A program made the translations under genes and the position numbers. A stretch of DNA of 64,000 bases from Conchocele bisecta (Eukaryota; Mollusca; Bivalvia; Lucinida; Thyasiridae): positions 24,479,505 to 24,543,504 of the forward strand of contig CM055274.1 in the NCBI GenBank assembly GCA_029237695.1, given 5' to 3'. Shown piece after piece: positions 13 to 61,233 of this stretch. Each line of letters begins with the position of its first letter. Position 1 is the stretch's first letter. The notes below the pieces were generated by a model. It was given only the letters and a program-made list of their open reading frames with translations, was not told the origin of the DNA and made no database searches.

Positions 13-130
13 TTCATGTGTAAACAGTAGTGTGATTTTATTTTACCCAATTAAAATTTTGAAATACCCAATTGCTTCAGAAATGATGGAGTAACAATAC
101 TCAATTACTAATTCCTTATCTGGAGCCCTG
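13..130. mobile_element. right half of a palindromic MITE cut by the gap
   Basis: Contains the motif TTACCCAATTAAAATTTTG and ends in CTTATCTGGAGCCC. It matches one arm of the complete elements at 29635-30032 and 58745-59142. Only one arm is present because the contig starts near the hairpin axis. The same truncated arm starts copy B at 36761. Confidence 0.75.
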
Positions 131-191
131 GACAGAATGCCATAAACAAGGATATAGACTGGTAGAAATGACGACAGGAATAACAACTTAC

Positions 192-281
192 CATGAATAG
201 CAAGGTCATGGTCGACAGGAAGAGTTTCCATGCCTGGCGTGTGAATGGGTAGTACCAGTCCATTATGTTCGTCACTGGATC
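192..281 (-). CDS. anoctamin (TMEM16) exon: start of TM3 (copy A)
   Basis: A 90-bp, phase-0 exon of 30 codons on the minus strand. The acceptor is a TTTCAG before GATCCAGTG and the donor is ATG followed by GTAAGTTG. The peptide begins DPVTNIMDWYYPF and ends in the hydrophobic KLFLSTMTLLFM. Anoctamins have a matching 'NP(I/V)(S/T)...EPY.P' segment between TM2 and TM3, followed by the start of TM3. The previous exon (14007-14128) ends on a codon boundary with KSRL, so the two join in frame. The intron between them is 13.7 kb in this copy. The exon is identical base for base to 36940-37029. The family call is firm; the paralogue is not resolved. Downstream exons lie left of the window. Confidence 0.85.
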
Positions 282-333
282 CTGAAACAACACAACACAC
301 GTGGCTGTGACTGGAGAAATGGGGCTTATTGGA

Positions 334-774
334 GAGCTCCAGAAAAGATGTGTACTGGTGTGTTTTTACACACTTATTTTAGCTGAATATGCATTGATTA
401 TCAACAGAGTTACAAAGTACTCGCAGCAATGTGAAAATATGCATTGATTTTCAAATTGAGTAGTGGAAATACTGTAATACAGTTTCAAATTTACTAAACT
501 GTTTGCTTTTTGCGGCTCAACTATTAATTTAAAAGTAAATTAGTGTTTGCTCTTTGCAGCTGAAATAAGTAAATTTTCAACTTTATTACAGTATAAATAA
601 GTGAATAAGTAAGTATACACTCAAATATGTGAATGTTTAAATTTGTTTTATATATTTTGATCATTTGTTCCCTATTTAATAAAGAAGAAACTCAATAATC
701 CATAAATAAAATATGCATTTAATTTGAAATCAGGGGGTACAATACTCTTTAGACACATAGCTTATCTGCAGCTC
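334..774. mobile_element. MITE with GAGCTCCAGA ends
   Basis: Starts GAGCTCCAGAAAAG and ends CTTATCTGCAGCTC, an imperfect inverted pair, with an AT-rich interior containing repeated TATGCATTGATT motifs. It is related to 23304-23657. The allelic copy is 37082-37521. It lies in the intron 5' of the 192-281 exon. Confidence 0.6.
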
Positions 775-776
775 TG

Positions 777-1020
777 TTAACCCTTTCAACAGCACAGGCT
801 GTATAGTGGTATTGGCAAACAGTGAAGATCCAGATGAGCCGGCTCGTGACGAGCCGTCTCATCAGGATCTGCACTTTTTGCAAGTAATTTTCATATTTTT
901 GAGAGCAAAAACGCCCCCTTTTCATAAATTGACTAGTCTGAAAATCTTTTGTGACAATGGGATTGGTTGCAAAATTAACATATCAAATTCATACCAGTTA
1001 CAAAGGGGTGAAAGGGTTAA
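777..1020. mobile_element. TTAA-flanked MITE (TTAACCCTTTC type)
   Basis: Bounded by TTAACCCTTTC and GAAAGGGTTAA. The interior carries a short hairpin around GAGCCGGCTCGTGACGAGC. TTAA ends followed by CCCTTT are what piggyBac-type non-autonomous elements show; there is no transposase here. The allelic copy is 37523-37769. Confidence 0.65.
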
Positions 1021-1163
1021 GGTGTAAAAGTCTTGGTCTCCTAATCCTAACACAGTCATGTGGCAAAAATACCATTTGTTAGAAGTAGGAATGGCGTTTC
1101 ACTGACTGAAAGGTGATCTGTGCAGCAGACACTGATTAGACTGTGCGGATGCACAGGCTGATC

Positions 1164-1468
1164 TGTAGCCTATTTCACCAACATTGCAAAGTACACTTTT
1201 CTAGCAAAGTATACTTTCAGGGAGAAACTCAATTTTTCGATAAATTTATTAATTTTTATTATACTGAATTTATTACATTATCACAGCCAATTTGGCTGTG
1301 ATAATGTAATAAATTCAGTATAATAATTCTACATTCTTTTAATCATCAAATATATGGATTTGTTAGTTCTATATGAAATAATGCATTTCAGGAAAAATAA
1401 ACGATTATTCCCTCAAAGTATACTTTGCTAGATAAGTATACTTTGCAATGTTGGTGAAATCGGCTACA
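1164..1468. mobile_element. palindromic MITE, TGTAGCCTATTTCA family
   Basis: A near-perfect fold-back of about 305 bp with ends TGTAGCC and GGCTACA. Subterminal AAGTATACTTT repeats lie in each arm, and the hairpin tip is at AGCCAATTTGGCT. Seven copies occur in the window: three allelic pairs plus an A-only copy at 14489-14793. Confidence 0.8.
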
Positions 1469-1764
1469 GGGTCTCCACTGGTCGCAAATGTCATAAGCCC
1501 TATTTCTCAAATACTAGTCACAAATAACACTTGAAAAATTTAAATCTAATGGCTATCATCCGCTCTATCACCAAACATGTCCAATCCACCAAACAACGCT
1601 TTGTTTACTGCAATTAAGACTTACATATGTAGGAATATAGAGTGTATTTACTGTTTTCAGTGAAAGATTATATTTTTCATAGTGAACAACAAATGTTTGT
1701 CATTAAATCATTATATTCCAATATGTCCAGTAGTTAGTTTTCCACTTTGGTAACATACATTATA

Positions 1765-1892: not shown

Positions 1893-2530
1893 CTTTATTA
1901 TACCGAATATAACTAACATTTCACATTGCACACATTGCTTCCACTGGCTTCCACCATCTTTGTTTACATCTGCACAGCTGGTGCCCGGTTTACAATGCTT
2001 TACTGTTATAGGGGTAATAAAACGGGGGTACCAGTCAGCGTCTGCTTTCATCTCATTCGGTACTTTCGGTTTCGATGCGTAATAAGCTACAAGGTACTCC
2101 AATTAATGTTCGGTAGTTTCCGAGACTTCGGGTATCTTCGGGCGAAACGGTCGACAATTATATATTGTCTCATGGCATTGTTGCCCTCAGGGTACACATG
2201 GCCAATTGCTTTACAGAGTGGCCTGCGGTTCTCTTACCAGGCGAATTGCAATTCCTGGAGCGCAGGATTGCAATTCGCGTTCCCATTAATTGCAATTGGA
2301 CCGCAATCGGACTGCAATCATGTGACCGCGGTCCAAAGAGTTGGTTGCGGAATTGCAATACTTATAGGCTAGCGCAGTTCGCGCTGCGCTCCGGTTTTAA
2401 TTGCAATTTACGCTCCTTTGTTTCTGTAAACTGCGAAAGAATGACTGCTTTACGCTGGGCTCTGCGGTAAAACCAGCGGACCGCTCTGCTTAACCAATGC
2501 GGCAATAAAATCGAAATAGTTGACTATATA
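1893..2530. repeat. diverged relative of the satellite-associated block, inverted
   Basis: Contains several AATTGCAATT palindromes and a CTTACCAGG-type end near 2221-2260. In reverse orientation these match the right ends of the blocks at 11757-11775 and 13780-13838. Short overlapping open frames here have no recognisable domain and are not called as genes. Confidence 0.45.
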
Positions 2531-3248
2531 GAGAATATTAGTATAGTGTCATGAACGTGAATAAATATATGTCGAGGCTGAGAAATCAGGATGGGCGAGG
2601 CTTGCCGAGCACATCCTGATTTCGAGCCGAGTCAGATATTTATTCACGTTCATGACACTATAATAATATTCTATTTATCCCGTTAACCACATCAAAGTTG
2701 TTCAAATGTCTCTAAAAATGCATTTGTGGCCTCATAAGTTTGTCTTCTGAAGCGACAAGATTATCGTGTTACGTCATTCACATAATGACGTAACGTCATA
2801 CATAATGACGTATCTACTAGACGTGAACGAGAAAAAATACACGTACCTGCTTTTCACGTCTAGTAGCAACGTAGTTGACGGGATAACTATCTTTATCCCG
2901 TCAACTATGTCGCTACTAGACGTGAAAAGCAGGTACGTGTATTTTTTCTCGTTCACGTCTAGTAGATACGTCATTATGTATGACGTTACGTCATTATGTG
3001 AATGACGTAACACGATAATCTTGTCGCTTCAGAAGACAAACTTATGAGGCCACAAATGCATTTTTAGAGACATTTGAACAACTTTGATGTGGTTAACGGG
3101 ATAAATAGAATATTATTATAGTGTCATGAACGTGAATAAATATCTGACTCGGCTCGAAATCAGGATGTGCTCGGCAAGCCTCGCCCATCCTGATTTCTCA
3201 GCCTCGACATATATTTATTCACGTTCATGACACTATACTAATATTCTC
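2531..3248. mobile_element. tail-to-tail palindromic dimer of a modular hairpin element
   Basis: A 718-bp near-perfect palindrome centred near 2889. Each arm reads GAGAATATTAG, then a hairpin of about 140 bp, then TATTCTATTTATCCCG, a cargo of about 250 bp, and GTTGACGGGATAA. The two units meet at their GGGATAA ends across a few bases. A single unit is at 31630-31985. The 79-residue open frame reads almost identically on both strands only because of the palindrome. Confidence 0.8.
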
Positions 3249-4013
3249 TATATCTATACACTGTATGGTACGTCAATACAGTCACATTTGACTATTAGAT
3301 GACAAACGTATCCGTGTTCCAATCCAAAATTTTATCCCATCTATCTAATTCAAAGTGACTACCCTAGAAAGTCAGCGGTATTTGTGATCTGTTTTTTTGG
3401 TGCGCAATATAAATCGGCGGGTTATTGCCAGACAAACAGTGAAACATTGACCTTGACAATTTCTTGGACAAAACAAAATGTCGTCACTCACTCACTGCCG
3501 TTCCGAATATCAAGAACACATTAATAGACACCACCATGCTGACAATATATTTATTTTCATATAAAATCAAATGATAATGTGTGGTCTACGGTATAATATA
3601 GCAAAACAAAGCATCAATTTTGCGTTTTGTTTACTTTTTCGTCGGTATCAAATTACGTTTTCCTATTATGTTGACATTATTTCGACGCGATCCTATAGTC
3701 GACATGACAATTTCTGAGATCAATACAACTTTTCATAATGTCTTTCAATTTCAAGCTGCAAGGAGGCTGTGAATTGCATATTAACCATAATAACATGGTG
3801 AACATATTGATAATAATTTTAAAAGAAAAGCATATTTTAATTTTCGAAACCTGATCTATAAAAATTAAAATATTAAAAATTTATTTTGGAATAAGATTTA
3901 TATTACTGCAAACGTTCTGTTCTAGCTGTTGATTTCTATTGGCCCGATTCAAATTTTGTGAAGATAATATTTATTCCGGTGATAGCCATTTATTTAAAAT
4001 AAAACGGTTTACT
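3249..4013. other. unassigned A-only sequence
   Basis: AT-rich sequence within the A-only block. No repeat family, exon, long open frame or RNA signature was recognised. Confidence 0.5.
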
Positions 4014-4582: not shown

Positions 4583-4636
4583 AGTTACTTCCCGCAACTA
4601 CGTTGGGCGCTAAATGTCACAGGGTGAGAAAGATGT

Positions 4637-4708
4637 GCACCAGCCCGGAATCGAACCGGGGATCTCTGGTTTACCACACCATCGCTCTACCTGCTGAGCA
4701 AATTGGGC
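4637..4708 (-). pseudogene. tRNA-like sequence 2 (Thr-like, GGU anticodon position)
   Basis: A 72-nt segment with a D-stem GCTC/GAGC, a four-pair anticodon stem with a 7-nt loop (GGT at the anticodon position) and a perfect T-arm CCCGG-TTCGATT-CCGGG. The acceptor stem mispairs at several positions, so a working tRNA is unlikely. A tRNA-derived pol III promoter inside a repeat is the more probable reading. Confidence 0.5.
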
Positions 4709-8640: not shown

Positions 8641-10206
8641 ATTTGATCAGTCGGCCATTACACCATGACTAGTTTAGCACTTGATCAGTCGGCCATCGCA
8701 AAAGAACTAGTTTAGCACTTGACCAGTCGGCCATCACACCAGGACTAGTTTAGCACTTGATCAGTCAGACATCGCTCCAGGACTAGTTTAGAACTTGATC
8801 AGTCGGCCATCGCACCAGGACTAGTTTAAAACTTGATCAGTTTCCCATCTCACCAGGACTAGTATAGCACTTGATCAGTCGGCCATCGCACCAGGACTAG
8901 TTTAGAACTTGTTCAGTCGGCCATCACACCAGACTAGTTTAGCACTTGATCAGTCGGCTATCGCACCGGGACTAGTTTTAGCCCTTGATCAGTCGGCCAT
9001 CGCACCAGGACAAGTATAGCACTCGATCAGTCGGCCATCGCACCAGGACTAGTTTAGAACTTAATCAGTCGGCCAGCGCTCCAGGACTAGTTTAGCACTT
9101 GATCTGTCGGCAATCTCACCATGACTAGTATAGAACTAGATCAGTCGGCCATCGCTCCAGGACTAGTTTAGCCCTTGGTCAGTCGGCCATCATACCAGGA
9201 CTAGTTTAGCCCTTGATCAGTTGGCCATCGCACCAGACTAGTGTAGTCCTTGATCAGTCGGCCATCGCACCAGGACTAGTATAGAACTTGATCAGTCGGC
9301 CATCGCACCAGGACTAGTTTAGCCCTTGATCAGTCGGTCATCGCACCAGGACTAGTAGAGCACTTGATCAGTCTGCCATCGCACCATAAGTAGTATAGCG
9401 CTTGATTAGTCACCCATTGCACCATGCCCAGTATAGCACTTGATCAGTTGGCCATCTCACCATGCCCAGTATAGCACGTGATCAGTCGGCCATGACATGC
9501 CCAGTATAGCACTTGATCAGTTGGCCATCTCACCATGCCCAGTATAGCACGTGATCAGTCGGCCATGCCGAGTATACATGTAGCACTTGATCAGTCGGCC
9601 ATTGCACCAGGACTAGTAGAGCACTTGATCAGTCTGCCATCGCACCATAACTAGTATAGCGCTTGATCAGTCGGTCATCGCACCAGGACTAGTAGAGGAC
9701 TTAATCAGTCTGCCATCGCACCATAAGTAGTATAGCGCTTGATCAGTCGCCCATTGCACCATGCCCAGCATAGCACTTGATCAATTGGCCATCTCACCAT
9801 GCCCAGTATAACACGTGATCAGTCGGCCATGCCGAGTATAGCACTTGATCAGTCGGCCATCACACCAGGACTAGTTTAGAACTTGATCAGTCGACCATCA
9901 CACCAGGAATAGTTTAGCCCTTGATCAGTCAGCCATCGCACCGAGAGTAGTTTAGCCCTTGATCAGTCGGCCATCGCACCAGGACTAGTATAGCACTCGA
10001 TCAGTCGGCCATCGCACCATGACTAGTTTAGAACTTGATCAGTCGGCCATCGCACCACGACTAGTTTAGAACTTGATCAGTCGGCCATTTAACCAAGACT
10101 ACTTTAGAACTTTATCAGTCGGCCATCGCACCAAGACTATTATTATAGCACTTGATCAGTCGGCCATCGCACCAGGACTAGTTTAGCACTTGATTAGTCG
10201 GCCACG
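8641..10206. repeat. 38-bp satellite array 1
   Basis: About 41 tandem copies of a unit containing TGATCAGTCGGCCATCGCAC and CAGGACTAGTTTAGCAC. Sub-variants include CCATGCCCAGTATAGCACG. Each full unit carries TGATCA and ACTAGT. The array ends at GTCGGCCACGTCATCCTG, the same boundary as array 3. Confidence 0.9.
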
Positions 10207-10423
10207 TCATCCTGCGTTACAGACAGAAGTGGTGGTCGGTGGGGGGGGGGGTGTAGTGTAGTCATAGACACAAACTGGTGGTGGTGATATAGACCGGAAC
10301 TTTTAGGATGCCAAATGTAGATGGCTGGTGTGTGTGGGGGATCATTGTTTTGTGTCCCCCGCGGTGGTGCGGAGTACAATGATGAATTACTTATGAATCG
10401 CAGGCGGGGAGTGTAGTATTTCA
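10207..10423. repeat. inter-satellite block 1 (internally deleted)
   Basis: Contains a G-rich tract, GGATATAGACC-like sequence, GGATCATTGTTTTGTG and then GAATCGCAGGCGGG. It is a shortened version of blocks 2 and 3: the middle section of about 500 bp is missing. Confidence 0.7.
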
Positions 10424-11034
10424 CATGCCCAGTAGTATATCACTTGATTAGTTGGCCATCTCACCATGCCCAGTATAGCACGTGATCAGTCGGCCATGCC
10501 GAGTATAGCACTTGATCAGTCGGCCATCGCACCAGGACTAGCAGAGCACTTGATCAGTCTGCCATCGCACCATAACTAGTATAGCGCTTGATCAGTCGCC
10601 CATTGCACCATGCCCAGTATAGCACTTGATCAGTTGGCCATCTCACCATGCCCAGTATAGCACGTGATCAGTCGGCCATGCCGAGTATAGCACTAGATCA
10701 TTCGGCCATCACACCAGGACTACCTTAGCACTTGATCAGTCGGCCATCGCACCAGGACTAGTATAGCACTCAATCAGTCAGCCATCACACCAGGACTAGT
10801 ATAGCACTCGATCAGTCGGTCATCGCACCGGGACTAGTTTATAACTTGATCAGTCGGCCATCATACCAGGACTAGTTTAGAACTTGATCAGTCAACCATC
10901 GCACCAGGAATAGTTTAGCCCTTGATCAGTCGGCCATCGCACTGAGACTAAATTTAGCCTTGATTAGTCGGCCATCGCACCAGGACGACTAGCATAGCAC
11001 TCGATCAGTCGGCCATCGCACCAGGACTAGTTTA
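10424..11034. repeat. 38-bp satellite array 2
   Basis: About 16 copies of the same 38-bp unit. It starts with the CATGCCCAGTA variant, as array 3 does, showing that block plus array duplicated as a higher-order unit. Confidence 0.85.
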
Positions 11035-11787
11035 GTGGTGGTCGGGGGTGGGGTGTGTTGTGTAGTCATAGACAAAAACTGGTCGTGGTGGTGATACACA
11101 TTGTTCCCACTGTGGGATATAGACCGGAACTTTTAGGACGCCAAATGTAGATGGCTGGTGTGTGTGGGGGATCATTGTTTTGTGTCCCCGGCGGTGGTGC
11201 GGAGTACAATGATGAATTACTGATGAATTACTGTATTGAACACACATGTATATGTACTGTGATACCGTACTTCACAATCCTCAGTTTTAAATTGTTTCTG
11301 TATCGTAAAACTGAACATTTATTCATTTTGAAAAACTTACAATTGTGGCAGATGATCGAAATGAAAACCGGATGTTTACATGCGAAATGAACCGGTGCAT
11401 CGGTATATTTTAACCGCACGATGACCCACTGTATATTCATACCATATCCGTACGGATATATCGTATATACGAACGGATATCATATGTTTTTGTATAATCG
11501 TATAGTACGTTTGTATAATGTAAACAAACTGTACTATGCGATGATACGGTAAGTTTTTAACGGAAATAGCGAAAGAATGACCGCACAAACGGTATCGCGA
11601 AAGAATGACCGCACAAACTGGACCGCGAAAGAATTACCGCACAAATGGTATCGCAAAAGAATGACCGAAACAACGGGACCGCGATTGGACCGCAATTAGA
11701 CTGCAATTTCAGAGCGGACGAATTGCAATTCAACGACCGCTGGATTGCAATTCTTGGTAAGTGAATCGCAGGCGGGAGTGTAGTATT
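11035..11787. repeat. inter-satellite block 2
   Basis: Contains GTGGTGGTCGG, GGATCATTGTTTTGTG, then AAAACTGAACATTTATTC. A run of four diverged 27-bp units follows (GCGAAAGAATGACCGCACAA), then AATTGCAATTC palindromes and the end GAATCGCAGGCGGGAG. No coding potential was recognised. Confidence 0.75.
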
Positions 11788-13082
11788 TCACCATGCCCAG
11801 TACGTATAGCACTTGATTAGTTGGCCATCTCACCATGCCCAGTATAGCACATGATCAGTCGGCCATGCCGAGTATAGCACTTGATCAGTCGGCCATCGCA
11901 CCAGGACTAGCAGAGCACTTGATCAGTCTGCCATCGCACCATAACTAGTATTATAGCGCTTGATCAGTCGCCCATTGCACCATGCCCAGTATAGCACTTG
12001 ATCAGTTGGCCATCTCACCATGCCCAGTATAGCACGTGATCAGTCGGCCATGCCGAGTATAGCACTAGATCATTCGGCCATCACACCAGGACTACTTTAG
12101 CACTTGATCAGTCGGCCATCGCACCAGGACTAGTATAGCACTCAATCAGTCGGCCATCACACCAGGACTAGTTTAGAACTTGATCAGTCGGCCATCACAC
12201 CAGTACTACTTTAGCACTTGATCAGTCGGCCATCGCACCAGGACTAGTATAGCACTCGATCAATCGGCCATTGCACCAGGCTAGTTTATAACTTGATCAG
12301 TCGGCCATCGCACCAGGACTTAGTTTTTGAACTTGATCAGTCGACCATCGCACCAGGAATAGTTAGCCCTTGATCAGTCGGCCATCGCACTGCGACTAGT
12401 TTAGCCCTTGATTAGTCGACCATCGCACCAGGACTAGATAGCACTCGATCGGTCGGTCGACATACTACGCACCGAGGAGCTAGTTTTAAGAACAATTTTG
12501 AAATCAGTCGGCCAATCGCCACCACGACTAAGTTATTTTAGAAACTTGAATCAGTCGGACAATCGCACCAAAACTAGTTTACCGTCCATTGATCTGACGC
12601 CATCGCACCATGAACTAGTGTTTAGAAACTTTTGATCAGTCGGTGGTCCACCCGCACCATGACTAGTTTTGCCCTTGCTCAGTCGGACCATCGCACCAGA
12701 ACTAGTTTAGAACTTGATCAGTCGGCCATCGCACCAGGACTAGTTTAGAACTTGATCAGTCGGCCACCGCACCACGACTAGTTTTGACCTTGCTCAATCG
12801 GCCATCGCACCAGGACTAGTTTAGAACTTGATCAGTCGGCCCATCGCACCACGACTAGTTTAGTTTAAACTTGATCAGTCGGCCATCTCACCAAGACTAG
12901 TTTATTAGCCCTTGCTCAGTCGGCCATCGCACCTGGACTAGTATAGCACTCGATCAGTCGGCCATCGCACCACGACTAGTTTAGAACTTGATCAGTCGGC
13001 CATCGTACCAAGACTAGTATAGCACTTGATCAGTCGGTCATCGCACCAGGACTAGTTTAGCACTTGATCAGTCGGCCACGTC
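11788..13082. repeat. 38-bp satellite array 3
   Basis: About 34 copies. Units between roughly 12430 and 12680 are disrupted by many small indels, either an old degenerate stretch or poor consensus quality. It ends at GTCGGCCACGTCATCCTG like array 1. Confidence 0.85.
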
Positions 13083-15979: not shown

Positions 15980-16293
15980 GTAGCCTATTTCATCAACATT
16001 GCAAAGTATACTTTACTAGCAATACTAGCAAAGCATACTTTGAGGGAGTAATCATTTATTTTTCCTGAAATGCATTATTTCATATAGAACTAACAAATGC
16101 ATATATTTCATGATTAAAAGTATGCAGAATTATTATACTTAATTTATTACATTATCACAGCCAAATTGGCTGTGATAATGTAATAAATTTAGTATAATAA
16201 AAATTAATAACTTTATCATAAAATTGAAAATTTCTCCCTCAAAGTATACTTTGCTACTAAAGTATACTTTGCAATTTTGATGAAATGGGCTAC
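15980..16293. mobile_element. palindromic MITE, TGTAGCC family
   Basis: Ends GTAGCCTATTTCATC and GATGAAATGGGCTAC, axis at AGCCAAATTGGCT. It ends 22 bp from the donor of the 16316-16404 exon. The allelic copy is 44709-45012. Confidence 0.8.
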
Positions 16294-16315
16294 TTGTATG
16301 ACCAATGGTACGTAC

Positions 16316-16404
16316 CCCATACACTGATGAATAAGGCGAAGTACGGTGTGACATCGTTGTCAAATGATTCCTTGATGTTTTTAAACAGGTCCGTTAGTGT
16401 TGAA
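16316..16404 (-). CDS. anoctamin exon: end of loop 1 and TM2 (copy A)
   Basis: An 89-bp exon with acceptor TGTGTTTCAG and donor TATGGG followed by GTACGTACC. It encodes STLTDLFKNIKESFDNDVTP and then TM2 residues YFALFISVW. Its first base completes an Asn codon with the 54-bp exon (AA+T), making N-S-T. Its last base starts the Gly of WGTLFLE. The segment 'FDN..T..FA.F...W' is typical of anoctamin TM2. Only two synonymous differences from 45113-45201. The donor is GTACGT here but GTAAGT in copy B. Confidence 0.9.
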
Positions 16405-16426
16405 CTGAAACACAAAGAAACACATT

Positions 16427-17323
16427 TGAGACACGCCATGGGAATTTGTACCTTCTGACAACAGCATTCTTTAACTAGAAATGTGGCCTGTCGGCACACG
16501 AATGCCCCCACTGGCAGCCAAAGAAAACGAGGCATATTTGATTATAAGCCATTTACCCGAGCGTTAAGGTTTCGAACGAACCAAATGTGTGACCTTGACC
16601 CTGGGCTTAGCGGGGGCAGGGCGAATGTGGATTTGTCACAGGGTGGTAGAGGACCATTGGAGCAATGCGTGTGTGAAATGTAACGCAGATCCGATCAAGG
16701 ACACAGAAATTACAAGCCATTTACCAAAGCGTTAAGGTTTGGAACGCACCAAGTCTGTGACCTTGACCCTGGGCTTAGCGGGGGCGGGACGAATGTGAAT
16801 TTTTCACAGGGCGGTAGTGGAGCATTGGAGCAATGTGTGTGTGAAATGTGAAGCAGATCCGAGCATGTAAGCCATTTACCCAGCGTTAAGGTTTCGAAAG
16901 CACCAAGTCTGTGACCTTGACCCTGGGCTTAGCGGGGGCGGGACGAATGTGGATTTGTCACAGGGTGGTAGAGGACCATTGGAGCAATGCGTGTGTGAAA
17001 TGTGAAGCAGATCCGAGCAAGGAAACAGAAATTATAAGCCATTTACCCAGCGTTAAGGTTTCGGGACGTACGTACGTATGTACGTACGGACGCCGGTAAC
17101 ACTATATGCCCCCCTCACCATTCGGTGGCGGGGGCATAATAAATACATTTACCAAATTTAACACATTTTCCATAAATGAAGTCAAAGGTTGACAAAACTT
17201 TCCGAGTACTCTGAAATTTTTGTCAACTTCTTAACTAATTTAAGAAAATATCCAATTTTCTGTAAATATATTTCATGAAATATCGCAGATGTCCGTAGGT
17301 AAAAAATCACATGGCGTGTCTCA
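16427..17323. mobile_element. TGAGACACGCC MITE split by a pearl-like insertion
   Basis: Ends TGAGACACGCCATGGG and CATGGCGTGTCTCA. The element starts 23 bp beyond the exon edge, on its acceptor side. The uninterrupted allele is 45224-45433. In A it is opened by the insertion at 16475-17137. Confidence 0.7.
16475..17137. mobile_element. pearl-like (Helentron-associated type) element, A-only
   Basis: About three 175-bp units containing GTGACCTTGACCCTGGGCTT and GGAGCAATGCGTGTGTGAA. They are followed by (ACGT)n and a terminal hairpin ATGCCCCCC-TCACC-/-GGTGGCGGGGGCAT. Copy B has the empty site TTTAATAAATAC at 45268-45280. Short frames across the units are not genes. Confidence 0.7.
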
Positions 17324-17496
17324 TATATACATGACCCACGAATAGCGGTGTGGTTAGTGAGATTATGACCAGTGACTCTTCATTCCTTGGTAAACTCATG
17401 CAGCCTGGTACCGATCTCAATATATAACATCCGGATTACTGCTACACTATGGACGTCACACATAGGACTGCCAATACAGTTTAACACCACAAAATA

Positions 17497-17677
17497 CAGT
17501 CAAACCTGTGAATAAAGGCCAGTCATGAGAAGTGAAAATTCTGGCCTTTGTTCACAGGTGGCCTTTATTCGCAGGGTCATTTATCTAGTAATTGTGCCAT
17601 TGGGACAACAAACGTGTGGCCTCTACAGCCAGGTGATTGCTATTCGGAGGTGGTCTTTAGCACAGGTTCGACTTTTG
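17497..17677. mobile_element. short pogo-like MITE
   Basis: Ends CAGTCAAACCTGTGAATAAA and TTTAGCACAGGTTCGACTTTTG, with internal GGCCTTTATTC and GGTGGCCTTT motifs. The end is similar to the element at 43054-43995. The allelic copy is 45631-45811. Confidence 0.6.
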
Positions 17678-17837
17678 ATAAAGACCATGTATCGAAAATT
17701 TAATAAAAAGAGTGACTTTAAAATAATGTATACAGTAATGATTCAGTAATTCTGCTTGTGACTAAGTTAGACCCTGATCAGACAGCAGCTGTTACACAGG
17801 TTGAAAGCTCAATCAAAACATTTTTGTTGTGACCACT

Positions 17838-18062
17838 GGTTGAAGTAACGGACTGAGGTTTATAAATATATACATTTTTTTTCGAGAATTTATTAGGGAC
17901 ATAAACTTTGAATTAAAAGTCTGACAACACTGACTGAAGGAATTATGACATTTTTGGAATGAACACTACATGTCACAACCACAGTTTGAAGTAATGGACC
18001 GAGGTCTATAAATACATTAAATATGCCTAAAAGCATTAATAAACGGAAAAAAAAATAAGATA
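17838..18062. repeat. diverged fold-back, CCGAGGTCTATAAATAC family
   Basis: Two direct motifs GGTTTATAAATATATAC and GAGGTCTATAAATACATTA, then GCCTAAAAGCATTAATAAAC. It is related to the perfect palindrome at 31443-31596 and to 27080-27370. It is also present in copy B near 45972-46180. Confidence 0.5.
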
Positions 18063-18404
18063 AACAATATTTTTTGTACTCCCTCCATATATATGTTTAG
18101 CTTATTTTTTTTCGAAAAAAATGTTTTTTTGTGTTTCCTTATAATCCCATCCCAATTATATTTCAAAGTGATGAAAATTATTTAAAATCATACTTTTCAT
18201 CCTATTACCAGACTACAACAAAAGCATACACCAATAGTTAGTTAGTCATATGTCTTCTTTTCATGATGCGTTGCGTGAAAATCTGTGACTTACCTAACGT
18301 CAAAATCATAACAAGATTTAAGAAAGTTGCTCTGACAAAATAAAATGGAAAATATTTCACGCAATATTGTATTTCTGTTTTTTTTTTCACATTTGAAATT
18401 GTTC
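18063..18404. other. AT-rich intron, nothing recognised
   Basis: Poly-A/T-rich sequence with a weak AATAAGATAAACAATATTTTTT fold near 18050-18110. No gene or repeat family assigned. Confidence 0.4.
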
Positions 18405-18645
18405 AAGTTTTGTTTGTTGGTGTTTAACGACCTATCAACAGCTAAGGTCATTTAAGGCTGGACCAACGGGGGAGGGGGGGGGATTCCCCATTTTGCTGAT
18501 ACAAAAATCTTGATTAGTTTCCTCGAATCTCCCAAAAAGTATAGGTTTGGCCACTATTTGAACAGCTTTATCGAGGCGGTTCAAATGAGTGGTCACAACA
18601 TATACTTTTGATGAGATGGGGTATTCTGCAAGAAATGGATTAAGC
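18405..18645. mobile_element. SINE-like repeat (AACGACCTATCAACAGC motif)
   Basis: Contains GTGTTTAACGACCTATCAAC then AGCTAAGGTCATTTAAGGC, about 40 bp also present at 24784-24825. A conserved core of this kind in different sequence contexts suggests a SINE, but no pol III head was identified. Allele near 46540-46800. Confidence 0.35.
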
Positions 18646-18696
18646 AAAATTTAGAACACAGAAAACCGAAACAAGAACAAAATCAAGAGGACTTAC

Positions 18697-18750
18697 TTTG
18701 TCTCGCTAGTGGTGGTCTGCTGTGGCTCATCTTCATACGTCTTGTCTATG
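18697..18750 (-). CDS. anoctamin 54-bp exon: extracellular loop 1 (copy A)
   Basis: A 54-bp exon between acceptor TTGTAG and donor ACAAA followed by GTAAGTCC. Its first C completes AGC (Ser) with the upstream exon's AG. It then reads IDKTYEDEPQQTTTSET and ends AA, completed by the next exon's T to Asn. Both junction phases fit, which is the main support, because the acidic, Thr-rich loop is not conserved. The loop has no cysteine. Identical to 46856-46909. Confidence 0.8.
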
Positions 18751-19012
18751 CTACAACGATATTCAATCATGGTATATATACTGGTGTTACCATTCTACTC
18801 CAGCTCAAACTAGTGTGCTAGGCTGAATAATGTTTATTAACCACAAACCCACTAACCCAACATTAAAACTTAAAGGGTTTATGAAGGAATGCCTTGATAG
18901 GACCTTTGGTCGAACATCGGAATAGTGTGTTTGTGCTTCATTAAGCATCCATAAACCCATTATTCCAACATTCCGCCAAAAGCCTTTATCAATGAATCAT
19001 TGGATAAAGGCC

Positions 19013-19417
19013 TTAAAGATACATGCCCACTCAGTAGGCACAAAATGTTCTTTATATCAGAGACATCATCTGAGACATTTCCTGGCAAAATAAACATTAA
19101 TTCACTATTTCCCCACGTATTGATTGACATTAATATACATTTTATATCAGATGTAAATTTTCAAACTGATATCAGGGGAGATAACCATGTTTCCTTTAAT
19201 TTGTATAAATAATTAAAAAATATCATGCCTCATTTGCATATGAAAATAGCCTGATACCACCGCGCGTCACTATCAGTAAAATAAATATTAATTAATGATT
19301 ATATCTGTATAGCGGGCACTCGTATTTTTTAGAACTGGTATAATAGTGACACAATTATACACTTATTTAATTACTATAAAGAACAGTGTGTGCCTACTGA
19401 GTGGACATGTACCTTTA
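19013..19417. mobile_element. TTAA-flanked AGGTACATG MITE with internal deletion
   Basis: Ends TTAAAGATACATGCCCAC and GGACATGTACCTTTAA. Compared with 47529-48037 it lacks about 105 bp between CATGTTTCCTT and AATTTGTATAAAT. Confidence 0.7.
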
Positions 19418-19658
19418 AGACGAAATGTGAGAAGAATATGTTTGTGCTTCATTAAACGTCACTGAATACTTCAGTAGAATACATCTACTTCATTTCAGGG
19501 AAAAACCTTTTTTACGTCCGTTCAATAGCAAGGTCATATGCGACTGTGAACGGAGAAATGGGACTAAGTATTATGGAATGTGTGGATATTCAAACTTCAG
19601 ATCATCTATGCAACAACACCATGTTATATTTACCATTCCACTAGCATACAAAATTACC

Positions 19659-19874
19659 TTAACCCTTACACTGCTGAATTAAATTTGTCGTCTGCCGATT
19701 TTTTGTTTTTAATTTTCAGTTTTATCAAGAAAAAACATAGTTTGGCAGCACTTTAGAATCATTTCCATTTGAAATGATTCTAAAGTGCTGCAAAACTATG
19801 TTTTTTATTAAGATTACAGACAAAATATTAAACAGCAGACAACACGTTTCGTTTCCCAGCGCTCCAAGAGTTAA
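19659..19874. mobile_element. TTAA-flanked palindromic MITE, GTCGTCTGC family
   Basis: TTAACCCTTACACTGCTGAA at the left, GTCGTCTGC in the left arm, hairpin tip CATTTGAAATG, GCAGACAAC in the right arm and GAGTTAA at the end. Four loci in each copy: 19659, 26445, 28712 and 30760 in A, with B alleles. Confidence 0.75.
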
Positions 19875-20380
19875 CAAGAAACGAGGCAAAGCCACGAAGG
19901 CCAGGTTTTTTCCAAGCATAGACACTTGGATAACAAAATTAATTTACCCACTTTTTTTAGGACTAGAATGGTCCGTGGCCTGGCATGTCGCGCCTTGGGG
20001 CGAGGCATGGACACTAAAAAAATAGATATAGTAGATGGAAAAACTTTAACCAAAAAACTTTAATCAGACACACGGATGTACGGACGTACAGACGGACGTA
20101 TGCCAAAATGCCGACGATATCGCGCTGAAAATGATGATAAACACCCATGTGAAGTATCAAGGTAATGGGTGAAGCAGTTGCAGAGATATAGTACACAAAA
20201 AAACTTTAACAAAAAAATTCAAAGTAATTTGACCTTGACATTGGGCATAGGGGCCGCACGGTTCGGGGGTAGAATGAAAATATAGATGATGATAAACACC
20301 CATGTGAAGTTTCAAGGTAATGGGCGAAGCAGTTGCAGAGATATAGTATAACGAAAAACTTTTAATAAAAAAAATTTAAC
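19875..20380. mobile_element. pearl-like element with two about 150-bp units
   Basis: Contains CCTTGGGGCGAGGCATGG, GACGGACGTACAGACGG, and two units with AAACACCCATGTGAAGT and GGTAATGGG(T/C)GAAGC; one has TTGACCTTGACATTGGG. Present in both copies (B about 48490-48990). Confidence 0.6.
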
Positions 20381-20748
20381 CACACGTACGTTAAACAGTT
20401 AACGTTGAAAATGGCTAAGTCAATTACGTAGAAATAATAGGTGAAAGTAAAAAAAATGGTCACATGTTGGATAGTTTTATGTGGTAGGCACCCCTTGGTT
20501 ATGAAGCTGTGAAAGTTTGGTGGTCCTAGGTGGTACAGTACCAAAGAAATGGACTTAAACACGAAAACTTAACATTGTAAACGCGAAAAGTTAACATTGA
20601 AAATGGGTCAAGTTTAAAAAAAGGTAACATGTTGGATAGTGATATGTGGTGGGCACCCCTTGATTATGAAGCTGTGAAAGTTTGATGGTCCTAGGTGGTA
20701 CAGTAACAAAGAAATGGACTCAAACACAAAAACTTAACATTGATTGTG
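20381..20748. repeat. two-unit direct repeat of about 190 bp
   Basis: AACATGTTGGATAGT-type sequence, GGCACCCCTTG(G/A)TTATGAAGC and GGTCCTAGGTGGTACAGTA occur twice, at about 20460-20545 and 20620-20710. Conserved in copy B (48990-49350). Confidence 0.7.
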
Positions 20749-20749
20749 G

Positions 20750-20995
20750 ACGCCGCCCGCCCGGCTTTCGCCAATCCAATAGCCTGAATTGTTTTAAAAA
20801 AACCTGGCTAAAAACGGAATACCATGCTAGTGTCTTCTACTATCAAGTATATCTGACTCAGCTCGGAATCGGTAGGAATTCCTGGGCAAGCCGAGGAATT
20901 CACACGCGTTTCCTAGCCTTGCCTGATAAACTTGGTATCAAAAGTCAATGGCCTTGTAAACTTTCACAGTCTTTCATTGCCAGAATGAGTTAAAA
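20750..20995. repeat. imperfect hairpin resembling the modular element core
   Basis: Contains TATCTGACTCAGCTCGGAAT, GGGCAAGCCGAGGAATTC and TTTCCTAGCCTTGCC. The order resembles the core of 2531-3248 (CTGACTCGGCTCGAAATC, CGGCAAGCC, CTCAGCCTCG). Present in both copies. The relationship is suggestive only. Confidence 0.4.
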
Positions 20996-21041
20996 AATAC
21001 AGCTAAGAGGTCTGAATTAACATTCCAATCCAAGATATTAC

Positions 21042-21357
21042 CTTCTGACTAAACCATAGATAAATATTGCAACGCCGAACAGCATAGGCAGCCAAAGCGT
21101 AGAGATCAACGTGCCTGACCAAGCGAAATAAAATGCAATCTTTTCGCCGAAATAGTTCCGAATTTTCCACAATGGCTGAAACTTGAAAATCTTGGTCCAT
21201 GTCAACTGTAAAGCTAGTCTTGAATCCGATTGAAGGACTTTGTCACTCTGAGGTAGTGTTTTGTTCTTCTTGTCTTCAGCGTCGGGGTCGTAGTTGGACT
21301 CCTCATGGAGAATGAACGTGTTTGTGTAGATTTCCTCCAGCTTCATATAGTCCAAAC
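21042..21357 (-). CDS. anoctamin exon: end of N-domain and TM1 (copy A, intact)
   Basis: A 316-bp exon with 104 full codons, acceptor CCTGCCAG and donor AGAAG followed by GTAATATC. Residues 1-56 form a hydrophilic cytosolic part (LDYMKLEEIYTNTFILHEES, then an Asp/Lys-rich stretch). FKFQPLWKIRNYFGEKIAF follows at 57-75, and TM1 at about 73-101 (YFAWSGTLISTLWLPMLFG, then VAIFIYGL). '(F/Y)KxQPLxxIRxYFGEKIxxYFAW' is the diagnostic anoctamin block just before TM1. The leading GT completes Gly with the upstream exon and the trailing AG joins the 54-bp exon as Ser. The frame is open throughout; the copy at 49652-49968 has one extra base. Confidence 0.95.
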
Positions 21358-21426
21358 CTGGCAGGGATAAGATTGGTTGGTTTATTGTTTGATTGATTTA
21401 TCTGTCACATACAGGATGGATTTATC

Positions 21427-21620
21427 TTAACCCTTTCAACCTTGGATATCATACATTGTGTTGTTGTTTTTTCATACTAATTTTGGAACTATTCCATTGA
21501 TGACAAAATGCTGATTTCCTTTTGAGCTGAATTAATAGTGACAATTAAATGCCGTCTCATCTGGATCTACAGAGTTTGGACAAGTTGGCTTTCTGGCCTC
21601 TGGGGTTGAAAAGGATAAGA
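21427..21620. mobile_element. TTAACCCTTTC-type MITE, degraded
   Basis: TTAACCCTTTCAACC at the left and GGGGTTGAAAAGGATAA at the right form a decayed terminal pair. The interior shares GCCGTCTCATCTGGATCTA with the family at 777-1020. In B at about 50038-50228. Confidence 0.5.
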
Positions 21621-21766
21621 TATGCAGATCTTCACAATCTCCCATTGGAAATTTTGTTTGACATGTACATGAATTCTATAATGGTCATTCACAAATGGAC
21701 AAAAGTGGAGTCCTTTTTTTCACATACCCACATAGTATTTTTGTAAAAGCTCATGGACAAACTTAC

Positions 21767-21837
21767 CAACTTTCTGCATGTCACCCAGCTCACTTCATCA
21801 TCTTGAGCAACCCCCAACAGTTTCCCGATGGACTTCG
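21767..21837 (-). CDS. anoctamin upstream exon (copy A, frame disrupted)
   Basis: A 71-bp segment with acceptor CTGTTTTCAG and donor AAAGTTG followed by GTAAGTTT. It aligns with the 69-bp exon 50377-50445. It has one more A in GGGAAAC, one less A in AAGATG and a two-base TG insertion in GAAGTGAG. In the frame needed to reach the next exon it breaks near the middle, while copy B reads through. This is an allelic defect or consensus indels. The family assignment rests on position and phase only. Confidence 0.6.
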
Positions 21838-21889
21838 CTGAAAACAGAAAAAATATATACAGTGAAATCGCGATGGCTCGAAATGCAAT

Positions 21890-22952
21890 GACTCGTAATG
21901 ACCTTGACCTTGGGATCAGCGGGGGTTGGATGTCATGGATTTGGCACAGCATGGTAGTAGAGCCTTACAGGAATGCATGTGTGAAATATTAAGCATTTTA
22001 GACGAAGGAAATAGAAGTTATAACATATTTCTCTGATGTTAAGTTTTGTAAAGAGACTAAGTATTTGACCTTCACCTTGGGATCAGTGGGGGTTGGACGT
22101 CGTGGATTTGGCACAGCACGGTAGTAGAGCCTTACAGGAATGCATGTGTGAAATATTAATAATTTTAGACAAAGGAAATAGAAGCCATAACATATTTCTC
22201 TGATGGTAAGTTTTGCAAAGAGACTAAGTATGTGACCTTGACCTTAGGATCAGCGAGTGTTGGACGGCTGTAGATATGTCACAGCATGATAGTACAACCT
22301 TAGAGGAATTCAAAAGTGAAATATTAATAATTTTCAATGAAGGAAATAGAAGTTATAACTTATTTCTCTGATGTTAAGTTTTGAGACCAAGTATTTGACC
22401 TTGATCTTGGGATCAGCGGGGGTTGGACAGTCGTGGATTTGGCACAGCATGGTAGTAGAGCCTTACAGGAAAGCATGTGTGAAATATTAAGCATTTTAGA
22501 TGAATGAAATAGAAGTTATAACATATTTATCTGATGTTAAGTTTTGTAAAGAGACTAAGTATTTTACCTTGACCTTGGGATCAGCGGGGGTTGGACGGCC
22601 GTGGGTTTGGCACAGCACGGTAGTAGAGCCTTACAGGAATGCATTTGTGAAATATTAAGCATTTTAGATGAAGGAAATAGAAGTTACAACAATATTTCTC
22701 TGATGTTAAGTTTTGTAAACAGACTATGTATTTGACCTTGACCTTGGGATCAGTGGGGGTTGGACAGTCGTGGATTTGGCACAGCATGGTAGTAGAGCCT
22801 TACAGGAATGCATGTGTGAAATATTAAGCATTTTAGATGAAGGAAGTAGAAGTAACAATATTTCTCTGATGTTAAGTTTAGTGACACACGGACGGACGCA
22901 CGGACAACCCGACTCCAGTATACCCCCCACAACTGGTTGCGGGGGGTATAAT
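21890..22952. mobile_element. pearl-like element with six about 166-bp units
   Basis: Units start TGACCTTGACCTTGGGATCA and contain GGCACAGCATGGTAGTAG and GGAATGCATGTGTGAAATA. The array ends with ACGGACGGACGCACGG and a terminal hairpin ATACCCCCC-ACAACTGGTTG-CGGGGGGTAT. Repeat core, (ACGG)n and terminal hairpin are the bivalve pearl/Helentron-associated layout. Frames crossing it are not genes. Allele 50505-51560. Confidence 0.8.
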
Positions 22953-23303
22953 TATACCATAAAGTAGCAAGTGAAAGATTTTCTTTTGTGACAAATAAAA
23001 AACATATATGGACAATTATTGCAGCCCTGCTTTATCACAGTGTGACCCATATTACAAATTTCAATAAAGCCAGTGGCCAGTCATTATATGTCGACAGATA
23101 TAGGGTTTATGTTGTTCCCAAATACTGCTGGAAAGATAACAAATTGTAAAGCCGGTCAACTTCAGTATTCTATTTCAAACTTAAAATGGAAGTAGAAATA
23201 TTATTTGATAAAAGAAAGTAAAGTGCAGATATTGTATACAATAACAAAGAAATACCAACAAAATAGATCCGCAGAAAGTACTATTGTTATTTCCAACTAC
23301 AAG
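22953..23303. other. unassigned sequence
   Basis: Nearly identical in the two copies (B 51560-51912). No exon, repeat family or RNA signature recognised. Confidence 0.4.
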
Positions 23304-23657
23304 CAGCGCTCCAGATAAGGTGCGTATTGGCGTATTTTACGCACTTATTTTAGCAGATTATGCATTGATTATCAAAAGTGGGAGTACAAAATACTCACAG
23401 CAATTTGAAAATATGCATTGATTTTCAAATTGAGTAGTGAAAATAATGTAATAAAGTTAAAAATTTACTTAGTTGAGCTGCAGATTTTTGCAGCTCAAAT
23501 TAGTGAATTTTTAAATTTGTTTTTTTTATTTTTGTTATCATTTGTTCCCTAATTAATAAGAAAGAAAATCGATAATACATTTGTAAAAGTAAAATATGCA
23601 TTGAATTTGAAATCTGGGGGTATAATACTCTTTAAATACAAAACATATCTGGAGCAC
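23304..23657. mobile_element. MITE with GCTCCAGATAAGG ends
   Basis: Left end GCGCTCCAGATAAGGTGCGT, right end CATATCTGGAGCAC. It shares TATGCATTGATT motifs with 334-774. Allele 51913-52261. Confidence 0.65.
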
Positions 23658-23748
23658 TGTACAAGTAGCGTTACTAGCAATACATTGTACCAAAATACAT
23701 GTAGATGCACATACAGACGGAATACAGTGTTTTAGCAACATATCATAA

Positions 23749-23983
23749 TTAACTCTTTGCATGCTAGTGGTGAAAATATATAGCGGTGAGTATATTTTTT
23801 ATTTCTCTCTGTAAATATGTCTTGGAATTTCATTAGAATTGAGTCCTCTGGACTCAATTCTAATGAAATTCCAAGACATATTCATGATATTTACAAGGAG
23901 AAATAAAAGAAAATATGATGATTTTTGTCCGCTATTTTTTAACTATTTATAGCCCACAAGTTTCCCAGCATGCAAAGAGTTAA
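23749..23983. mobile_element. TTAA-flanked palindromic MITE, CTCTTTGCATGC family
   Basis: TTAACTCTTTGCATGC and GCATGCAAAGAGTTAA ends, with hairpin tip GAGTCCTCTGGACTC. A second locus is 31071-31279. Allele 52354-52588. Confidence 0.8.
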
Positions 23984-26147: not shown

Positions 26148-26149
26148 AA

Positions 26150-26368: not shown

Positions 26369-26444
26369 ATGAGGCTTAACCAGAAATTTATATTACTGAA
26401 AAAAAGAAAAAAAAACTTTAAAGGCCCTTGGTTTCAGATGTGGA

Positions 26445-31629: not shown

Positions 31630-31985
31630 TTATCCCGTCAACTATGTCGCTACTAGACGTGAAAAGCAGGTACGTGTATTTTTTCTCGTTCACGTCTAGT
31701 AGATACGTCATTATGTATGACGTTACGTCATTATGTGAATGACGTAACACGATAATCTTGTCACTTCAGAAGACAAACTTATGAGGCCACAAATGCATTT
31801 TTAGAGACATTTGAACAACTTTGATGTGGTTAACGGGATAAATAGAATATTATTATAGTGTCATGAACGTGAATAAATATCTGACTCGGCTCGAAATCAG
31901 GATGTGCTCGGCAAGCCTCGCCCATCCTGATTTCTCAGCCTCGACAGATATTTATTCACGTTCATGACACTATACTAATATTCTC
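31630..31985 (-). mobile_element. single modular hairpin element (A-only insertion)
   Basis: On the minus strand: GAGAATATTAG, hairpin, TATTCTATTTATCCCG, cargo, GTTGACGGGATAA. It is nearly identical to one arm of 2531-3248. Flanks are TAT on both sides, and copy B has the empty site with one TAT (AACAATATGAATAC near 60572), giving a 3-bp target duplication. Confidence 0.85.
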
Positions 31986-32378
31986 TATGAATACAAAGCA
32001 CAATCAACTACATTGCTGAAATATCTGCAATAAATGAATAGTGTGATGCTGTGCTGTGATGATATTAGAGTGGTGTCAAATCTATTAGCAAATTTACCGC
32101 TGGAATGAAGGTTAGACACGTCACACGGCACATCAAAGTGTACAAGGACACTATTATACTTCAAAGTTACAATATATGCCCATCGAGGTATGATCAGAAA
32201 ACAGAGGAAGAGAAAGTGAGACAATTTGAAGGATTTCTTCCCCTTCCCATGTAAATCAAACTAAGTTAGTGTACAGATGTATGTCAAGAACTTTAGCAAT
32301 CTGTAGATTGGCAAATTAAACTTTGCTTCCTTACAGGAATGCATGTGTGAAATATTAGGCATTTTAGATGAAGGAAAT

Positions 32379-32646
32379 ATAGAGAATAGTAGGTTAGTGC
32401 CGTGAATGGGAAAAAATATCTGGCAAGGCTCAGGAAACGGGATGGGCGAGGCTCTGCCGGGCACATCCCATTTCCGTGCCGCGCCAGATATTTTTCCCAT
32501 TCATTCGGCACTAACCTACTATTCTATTTATCCCGTCAACACCTACAAATGGCTGTAAAATGCAAAAATAGTATTGACTGGATATCAAAAATGTTTCACG
32601 GCACCGTGTTTCACGGCACATACGCACTGTGTTGACGGGATAAATA
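32379..32646. mobile_element. modular hairpin element, second family (copy A)
   Basis: GAGAATAGTAGG, a hairpin with core GGATGGGCGAGGCTCTGCC, then TATTCTATTTATCCCGTC, a cargo of about 80 bp and GTTGACGGGATAA. Same ends and core as 2531-3248, but the stem arms and cargo differ. It is inserted inside a pearl-type unit (ATTTTAGATGAAGGAAATA left, ACATATTTCTTTGATG right). Confidence 0.75.
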
Positions 32647-37521: not shown

Positions 37522-37522
37522 T

Positions 37523-49350: not shown

Positions 49351-49651
49351 TGATTGTGGACGCCGCCCACCGGCTTTCGCCAATCCAATAGCCTGAATTG
49401 TTTTAAAAAAACCTGGCTAAAAACGGAATACCATGCTAGTGTCTTCTACTATCAAGTATATCTGACTCAGCTCGGAATCGGTAGGAATTCCTGGGCAAGC
49501 CGAGGAATTCACACGCGTTTCCTAGCCTTGCCTGATAAACTTGGTATCAAAAGTCAATGGCCTTGTAAACTTTCACAGTCTTTCATTGCCAGAATGAGTT
49601 AAAAAATACAGCTAAGAGGTCTGAATTAATTCATTCCATCCAAGATATTAC

Positions 49652-60543: not shown

Positions 60544-60966
60544 ATCATCAGTTTGATAACCTACATGAAACAATATGAATACAAAGCACAATCAACTACA
60601 TTGCTGAAATATCTGCAATAAATGAATAGTGTGATGCTGTGCTGTGATGATATTAGAGTGATGTCAAATCTATTAGCAAATTTACCGCTGGAATGAAGGT
60701 TAGACACGTCACACGGCACATCAAAGTGTACAAGGACACTATTATACTTCAAAGTTACAATATATGCCCATCGAGGTATGATCAGAAAACAGAGGAAGAG
60801 AAAGTGAGACAATTTGAAGGATTTCTTGCCCTTCCCATGTAAATCAAACTAAGTTAGTGTACAGATGTATGTCAAGAACTTTAGCAATCTGTAGATCGGC
60901 AAATTAAACTTTGCTTCCTTACAGGAATGCATGTGTGAAATATTAGGCATTTTAGATGAAGGAAAT

Positions 60967-61233
60967 ATAGAGAATAGTAGGTTAGTGCCGTGAATGGGAA
61001 AAAATATGTGGCAAGGCTCAGGAAACGGGATGGGCGAGGCTCTGCCGAGCACATCCCGTTTCCGTGCCGCGCCAGATATTTTTTCCCATTCACGGCACTA
61101 ACCTACTATTCTATTTATCCCGTCAACACCTACAAATGGCTGTAAAATGCAAAAATAGTATTGACTGGATATCAAAAATGTTTCACGGCACCGTGTTTTA
61201 CGGCACATACGCACTGTGTTGACGGGATAAATA
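60967..61233. mobile_element. modular hairpin element, second family (copy B)
   Basis: Allele of 32379-32646 with a cleaner hairpin: arms CGTGAATGGGAAAAAATAT and ATATTTTTTCCCATTCACG, core GGATGGGCGAGGCTCTGCC and GAGCACATCC. Then TATTCTATTTATCCCGTC, a short cargo and GTTGACGGGATAA. Confidence 0.8.

What the first reader, a model, noticed from the sequence alone, without database searches (positions are those of the whole stretch)
2531..3248. Modular structured element family: shared ends and hairpin core, exchanged arms and cargo
The elements at 2531-3248 and 31630-31985 (family 1) and at 32379-32646 and 60967-61233 (family 2) have the same plan. It is GAGAATA, a hairpin of about 140 bp, TATTCTATTTATCCCG, a cargo, then GTTGACGGGATAA. 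The hairpin core (GGATGGGCGAGGCT, TGCCGAGCACATCC) is conserved. The stem differs between families (CGTGAATAAATAT against CGTGAATGGGAAAAAATAT), and in each the opposite arm changes to match. Cargo length and sequence also differ. Conserved ends and core with covarying arms suggest that the folded form matters for mobility or replication. I do not recognise this as a described family.
Basis: partly seen in the sequence, partly recalled or inferred. Interest (0 to 1): 0.8.

Follow-up and report, generated by a model that had tools for sequence, protein, structure and literature searches.

The report
Hairpin-ended, rolling-circle-like mobile DNA
Short, non-coding mobile DNA elements in this genome end in a giant hairpin whose two arms change together, and they look like passengers of a rolling-circle (Helitron-like) jumping machinery whose driver gene was not found.

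Summary
Each element runs 5' TTATCCC...cargo...GGGATAAAT-AGAATA-[giant hairpin]-TATTCTCTAT 3'. The 5' end is repeated, inverted, just before a 145-147 nt terminal hairpin. The 2531-3248 feature is a head-to-head dimer of the 359-bp unit seen singly at 31630-31988. The two family-2 copies are one insertion carried through a ~28.6-kb duplication, so they are not independent. The other duplicate lacks the 31630 element and gives an exact empty site.

The unnamed 1.89-Gb genome holds many near-identical copies. Of 73 units examined, 70 end in TAT while 5' flanks vary, so there is no target-site duplication. Five loci carry head-to-tail arrays joined end to end. Three further families have their own end repeats, matched at both ends. 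Hairpin-arm changes between families are largely compensatory.

Best explanation: non-autonomous, Helitron2/Helentron-like rolling-circle elements with an unusually large 3' hairpin. Mechanism is inferred; membership is not established. No autonomous partner was found: stretches beside 10 of 77 Helitron_like_N matches were read, and none showed these ends. Rated a new variant of a known kind.

The parts
2528..2886 (-). family-1 unit (359 bp), left half of a head-to-head dimer; 5' end at 2886, 3' hairpin end at 2528
2887..2892 (.). 6-bp spacer CTATCT between the two 5' ends of the dimer
2893..3251 (+). family-1 unit (359 bp), right half of the dimer; 2 differences from the left half
31630..31988 (+). 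single family-1 unit, TTATCCC...TTCTCTAT
   Evidence: empty site in the duplicate copy
31630..31642 (+). 5' ATIR TTATCCCGTCAAC
31829..31843 (+). inverted 3' ATIR GTTAACGGGATAAAT, directly before the hairpin
31844..31988 (+). 3' terminal hairpin, 145 nt, ending TATTCTCTAT
60547..60627 (+). empty site (duplicate copy without the 31630 element); junction 60576^60577
32379..32643 (-). family-2 unit, copy 1 of the segmental duplication; hairpin 32379-32525
60967..61230 (-). family-2 unit, copy 2 (same insertion); hairpin 60967-61112
20816..20966 (+). old copy of a third family's hairpin (family G type), ends decayed, no 5' end recognised
49425..49575 (+). the same old hairpin in the second duplicate

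Best explanation
These are non-autonomous rolling-circle elements that work like Helitron2/Helentron passengers. A HUH-type Rep encoded elsewhere would nick at the 5' TTATCCC end after a host (W)AT. One strand would be displaced up to the 3' end, where the giant hairpin beside the 3' ATIR acts as terminator, and would be cut after ...TTCTCTAT. The ends would join into a circle, which inserts at AT-rich sites without target-site duplication or, if copied more than once, inserts as a head-to-tail array. The paired arms are kept because the fold is read as single-stranded DNA, or because the arms are copied from one another during replication. Shown: ends, absence of duplication, one exact insertion, arrays with joined ends, covarying arms and ATIRs. 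Inferred: the Rep, the circle, and the terminator role of the hairpin.
For: Exact empty site. TAT after TTCTC in 70 of 73 distinct units while host 5' flanks end TAT in 25 of 67. Head-to-tail joints in 5 loci, 8 joints, 7 reading CTCTAT|TTATCC. ATIR immediately upstream of the 3' hairpin in 5 families whose ATIR sequences differ between families (families 1 and 2 share one) but match at the two ends. Covarying arms: family 1 vs G 18 double and 0 single changes in 44 shared pairs, family 2 vs G 17 and 0 in 47; in the whole structure 21 pairs have changes on both sides against 3-6 with partners slid. Seventeen of 73 units run on into an extra 3' module, which in 14 of the 17 matches to its last base, the same terminus, as expected of terminator bypass. 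Helitron_like_N is present in the genome, 77 matches. Helraiser behaves alike: its 3' hairpin stem could be exchanged with about 90% activity kept while the loop could not (PMC4778049, passages); here arms differ while part of the apical core is kept. ATIR layout as in Helitron2 (PMC3627910); TNAT^A insertion preference in Fusarium Helitron2-like elements (PMC5148889, passages).
Against: No RepHel element with these ends was found: stretches beside 10 of 77 Helitron_like_N matches, none with a paired ATAAATAGAATA...TATTCTCTAT end. The 3' ATIR lies 113-151 bp from the 3' end, not 20-30 (or 38-51) as published. A 5' hairpin inside the ATIR is present in family G by inspection but not seen in families 1 and 2. 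T on both sides of the insertion point, as in Helentrons, in only 10 of 45 units. The head-to-head dimer of the window, the only one among the 60 loci, is not a simple rolling-circle product.
Confidence: 0.7

Rival explanations
1. A different HUH lineage (Replitron-like, or an IS200/IS605-like single-strand cut-and-paste enzyme) moves them.
For: Large structured single-strand end, no target-site duplication, a short motif (WAT) before the 5' end similar to the TAT at the 3' end.
Against: The ATIR plus 3' hairpin layout is the published Helitron2 pattern, and tandem insertions are reported for Helitrons. No such other enzyme was looked for here.
Confidence: 0.15
2. Tyrosine or serine recombinase element (Crypton or IS607-like) that moves as a circle.
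For: Circle-like joints, no target-site duplication, and a roughly two-fold target signal (A at -8, T at +2).
Against: Gives no reason for covarying hairpin arms and matched ATIRs.
Confidence: 0.07
3. Cut-and-paste terminal-inverted-repeat MITE (TA target), of which the 718-bp dimer is the true element.
For: The dimer has 361-bp inverted repeats and could be flanked by TA.
Against: 64 of 73 units are neither in the dimer nor in a head-to-tail array; single units have no inverted repeats at their two outer ends and insert without duplication.
Confidence: 0.03
4. The arm covariation comes only from copying one arm from the other during replication, with no selection on the fold.
For: Palindrome arms can be rewritten by fold-back synthesis (general knowledge); no call excludes it.
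Against: Imperfect pairing persists in the same stretch near the apex in families 1 and 2, though not at identical pairs, which full rewriting would erase. One-sided changes remain in the duplicated family-2 copies.
Confidence: 0.3

Closest known systems
Helitron2 / Helentron and their non-autonomous HINE/DINE-1 elements
   Same: 5' end repeated inverted directly before a 3' hairpin; no target-site duplication; AT/T-rich targets; compensatory changes reported for Helitron-1N1_CQu and -1N2_CQu (PMC3627910 passages and section 9; PMC4067079 and PMC7492417 passages)
   Different: 3' hairpin is 113-151 nt instead of a short stem-loop, so the 3' ATIR is far from the end; target WAT^W more than T^T; no 5' ATIR hairpin seen in families 1 and 2; no autonomous partner found
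Fusarium FoHeli1/FoHeli2 (Helitron2-like)
   Same: ATIRs, insertion between TNAT and A, joined-end product (PMC5148889, passages)
   Different: 3' inverted repeat 38-51 bp from the end; autonomous copies known; different sequences
Canonical Helitron1 (Helraiser)
   Same: 3' hairpin as terminator with exchangeable stem, circle with joined ends, 3' bypass that transduces flanking DNA (PMC4778049, passages)
   Different: 5' TC and 3' CTRR ends absent; here ATIRs are present
Replitrons
   Same: HUH class considered (recalled; no paper on them was read)
   Different: not tested here

Membership tests
Helitron2/Helentron | 5' ATIR 0-2 bp from the 5' end | tested here: met
   families 1, 2, G with flanks from several copies; H and K judged from one copy each
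Helitron2/Helentron | 3' ATIR immediately upstream of a 3' hairpin | tested here: met
Helitron2/Helentron | 3' ATIR about 20-30 bp (38-51 in FoHeli) from the 3' end | tested here: not met
   113-151 bp
Helitron2/Helentron | 5' hairpin that includes the 5' ATIR | tested here: inconclusive
   CAGG-TAA-CCTG in family G by inspection; not in the predicted folds of families 1 and 2
Helitron2/Helentron | no target-site duplication | tested here: met
   empty site; flanks
Helitron2/Helentron | insertion at TT (Helentrons) | tested here: not met
   T on both sides in 10 of 45 units with host flanks on both sides
Helitron2/Helentron | RepHel-encoding partner with the same ends | tested here: inconclusive
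   stretches beside 10 of 77 Helitron_like_N matches, mostly one side only, none with these ends
Canonical Helitron1 | 5' TC and 3' CTRR | tested here: not met
   TTATCC...CTCTAT
TIR cut-and-paste MITE | terminal inverted repeats at both outer ends plus target-site duplication | tested here: not met
Crypton / IS607-like | recombinase gene in a relative with the same ends | not tested
   no such search was made
Replitron | single-Tyr HUH transposase in a relative with the same ends | not tested
   no such search was made

The most novel reading that the evidence does not exclude
A rolling-circle transposon group separate from Helitron1 and Helitron2, defined by a near-fixed TATTCTCTAT terminus and a giant 3' hairpin whose stems are interchangeable between families, with end repeats that change in matched pairs. 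It would be driven by an unidentified HUH enzyme that reads DNA shape at the stem and sequence at the apex and terminus, and could yield inverted dimers by hairpin replication, as parvoviruses do.
Probability: 0.15. Interest if true: 0.8.

Novelty: new variant of a known kind. Interest (0 to 1): 0.55.

Why it matters
One reconstructed Helitron is known to tolerate a foreign stem but not a foreign loop in its 3' hairpin (PMC4778049, passages). Here one genome holds several young families in which hairpin arms, and end repeats, were replaced in matched pairs while the terminus stayed nearly fixed: a natural version of that swap in a Helitron2-like setting, with a far larger hairpin. Joined-end arrays and chained 3' ends are preserved beside them, so the terminator role of the hairpin could be tested directly once the enzyme is found.

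Tried and rejected
Target-site duplication of TAT: suggested by the window (TAT on both sides of the 31630 and family-2 elements) but rejected when 42 of 67 host 5' flanks did not end in TAT.

Relatives outside the genome: none found. Viral contigs gave 0, 0 and 1 match, the one being a short chance-like match. A 17-letter pattern in prokaryote genomes gave 14 matches, no more than a rough estimate of about 30 by chance (my arithmetic), with 19-24 bp of similarity where any was reported. Plasmids and phages: no match. Rfam at gathering threshold: only a tRNA. Pfam: 0 of 10 window ORFs matched, of 29 listed at 100 aa or more.

Autonomous partner: stretches beside 10 of 77 Helitron_like_N matches were read (L082-L087, L094-L098), on one side only except for one match. 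Single motif-like matches occur, but no paired ATAAATAGAATA...TATTCTCTAT end. A 66-nt palindrome shared by two of them lies about 190 bp inside the end of their homology, so it is not their terminal hairpin.

No 5' end was recognised for the old hairpin at 20816. The covariance model was built from 8 sequences that include the window's own, which match by construction. Its 187 matches count most hairpins on both strands; two (L037, L066) look like an unrelated palindromic repeat. It was searched in 64 held sources only, not in the genome.

Bias to note: loci are the best 30 of 40 scored copies per query, so they are the most query-like. The family-1 query ran 10 bases past the 5' end and the family-2 query included TAT on both sides, so ranked copies are biased at those flank positions. 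Family-1 TAT at the 3' end (32 of 34), family-1 T at -1 (23 of 28) and family-2 A at -8 (31 of 39) are free of this.

Full report
What is there. The window is rich in satellites and palindromes, and 0 of 10 scanned ORFs matched Pfam. It belongs to an unnamed 1.89-Gb assembly. It looks molluscan to me, from recalled features such as HINE-like tandem repeats; this was not tested. A segment of about 28.6 kb spacing occurs twice (roughly 16-35 kb and 44.7-63.9 kb; 17794 of 18079 ungapped columns identical).

Anatomy. Read in the element's direction, family 1 is TTATCCCGTCAAC, 186 bp of cargo, GTTAACGGGATAAAT, then a 145-nt hairpin from AGAATA to TATTCTCTAT (359 bp in all). Family 2 is the same plan with 90 bp of unrelated cargo (best cargo match 20 bases, E = 0.02), 146-147 nt of hairpin and different arms. 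The 2531-3248 feature is two family-1 units head to head around 6 bp; its halves differ at 2 of 359 positions. It is the only such dimer among the 60 loci.

Insertion. The second duplicate lacks the 31630 element; 359 bp were inserted, with a 3-bp ambiguity TAT. From 60 loci (the best 30 of 40 scored copies per query) I took 75 units and dropped the 2 rows of L021, the same place as L016, leaving 73. TTCTC is followed by TAT in 70 of 73, while host 5' flanks end TAT in 25 of 67. So TAT belongs to the 3' end and nothing is duplicated. The preferred site is A at -8 (55 of 67), T at -1 (58 of 67) and T at +2 (39 of 45), with the query bias described under Tried and rejected. Tandem repeats near 22-23 kb resemble the family-2 flanks without the element and read like a diverged empty site (by inspection).

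Arrays. Five loci seen among the scored family-1 copies hold head-to-tail arrays of 2 to 4 units at about 359-bp spacing; 7 of 8 joints read CTCTAT|TTATCC and one reads CTCTTT|TTATCC. This is expected from rolling-circle copying or circle insertion. L077 holds a tandem array of the first ~50 bp of family 1, and L076 also has a unit facing its array tail to tail, 91 bp away.

More families. Flanks of the fetched loci gave family G (TTATCAGGTAAC ends, 150-151 nt hairpin with a related core; 5220 first-look candidates, 40 scored, full-length matches 95-100% identical), family H (TTATTATACACC ends, 113-nt hairpin with an unrelated core, one copy with both ends, L022) and family K (a family-2 type hairpin with a different ATIR, one copy, L070). 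Window 20816-20966 is an old G-type hairpin. In all five families the two ATIRs match each other; the printed comparison is out of register by one base for H and was read by eye. Each hairpin starts AGAATA; four end TATTCTCTAT and the K copy ends TGGTCTCTAT. One G copy (L056) has a shortened, 115-nt hairpin.

Covariation. On 8 hairpins (families 1, 2, G and the old copy), with 61 pairs found in at least two of three representative folds: 88.6% of cells paired; 21 pairs and 67 cells with changes on both sides; covariation score 0.351 against 0.124 in shuffles (0 of 500). Slid partners give 36-46% paired and 3-6 double-changed pairs. Two measures are weaker: the number of double-changed pairs is reached by 18 of 500 shuffles and further pair types by 92 of 500. 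The apical helix is poorly kept (59% of cells paired over 4 pairs). With the 5 window sequences alone, on pairs shared by families 1 and 2, all five measures exceed all 500 shuffles. Sequences are few and related within families, so independent events amount to about two or three replacements of arms. After the duplication, family-2 copies accumulated one-sided changes, so pairing is not maintained in resident copies.

Chained 3' ends. Sixteen of 39 family-2 units and 1 of 34 family-1 units continue into a ~175-bp module that holds its own palindrome and, where complete (14 of 17 match to the last base), ends with the family-2 3' arm and TATTCTCTAT. L060 has three in a row. This fits bypass of a terminator and use of a new one, as proposed for Helraiser (PMC4778049, passages).

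Known relatives. Helitron2 was described by ATIRs and hairpins at both ends (PMC3627910, passages and section 9); Helentrons and HINEs prefer TT (PMC4067079, passages); oyster HINEs have 11-12 bp subTIRs (PMC7492417, passages); Fusarium elements insert between TNAT and A (PMC5148889, passages). Helraiser kept about 90% activity with a foreign hairpin stem but not with an altered loop (PMC4778049, passages), which parallels exchanged arms around a partly kept core here. The present elements share the Helitron2 plan and absence of duplication but differ in hairpin size, target and, in two families, the 5' hairpin. I therefore say they work like Helitron2 and leave membership open.

Novelty. Listings from nine paper searches showed no title or abstract start describing a Helitron-like family with a terminal hairpin of this size. 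The library is open-access only and no repeat database was at hand, so this is weak evidence of absence.

Noticed in passing
window 16000-35342 and 44700-63909: Segmental duplication, 98.4% identical in ungapped columns, with several insertion differences between the copies (e.g. 31243-31415, 47038-47394) that could date repeats.
   Followed up: partly
window 13-1717 and 36761-38462: Second duplicated block, 97.5% identical.
   Followed up: no
window 39069-42068: Tandem array of about 126 copies of a 24-bp unit, open in several frames.
   Followed up: no
window 8643-13078: Arrays of a 38-bp repeat with 30-bp and ~182-bp higher-order units.
   Followed up: no
window 31443-31596 and 60390-60543: 154-bp near-perfect palindrome, related to other palindromes in the window.
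   Followed up: no
L018 about 2098-2789: Short tandem array (about 38 bp) made from the family-2 hairpin arm and terminus: a satellite apparently born from a transposon end.
   Followed up: no
L077 465-1062: Tandem array of about 12 copies of the first ~50 bp of family 1, upstream of a full unit.
   Followed up: no
L087 and L094: Two Helitron_like_N neighbourhoods share a 66-nt palindrome about 190 bp inside the end of their homology.
   Followed up: partly
L037 2022-2169, L066 200-345: A separate palindromic repeat (TGAATGGCC...GGCCATTCA) with a near-perfect stem of about 65 bp.
   Followed up: no
window 4636-4708: tRNA match on the minus strand (Rfam, 41.4 bits).
   Followed up: no
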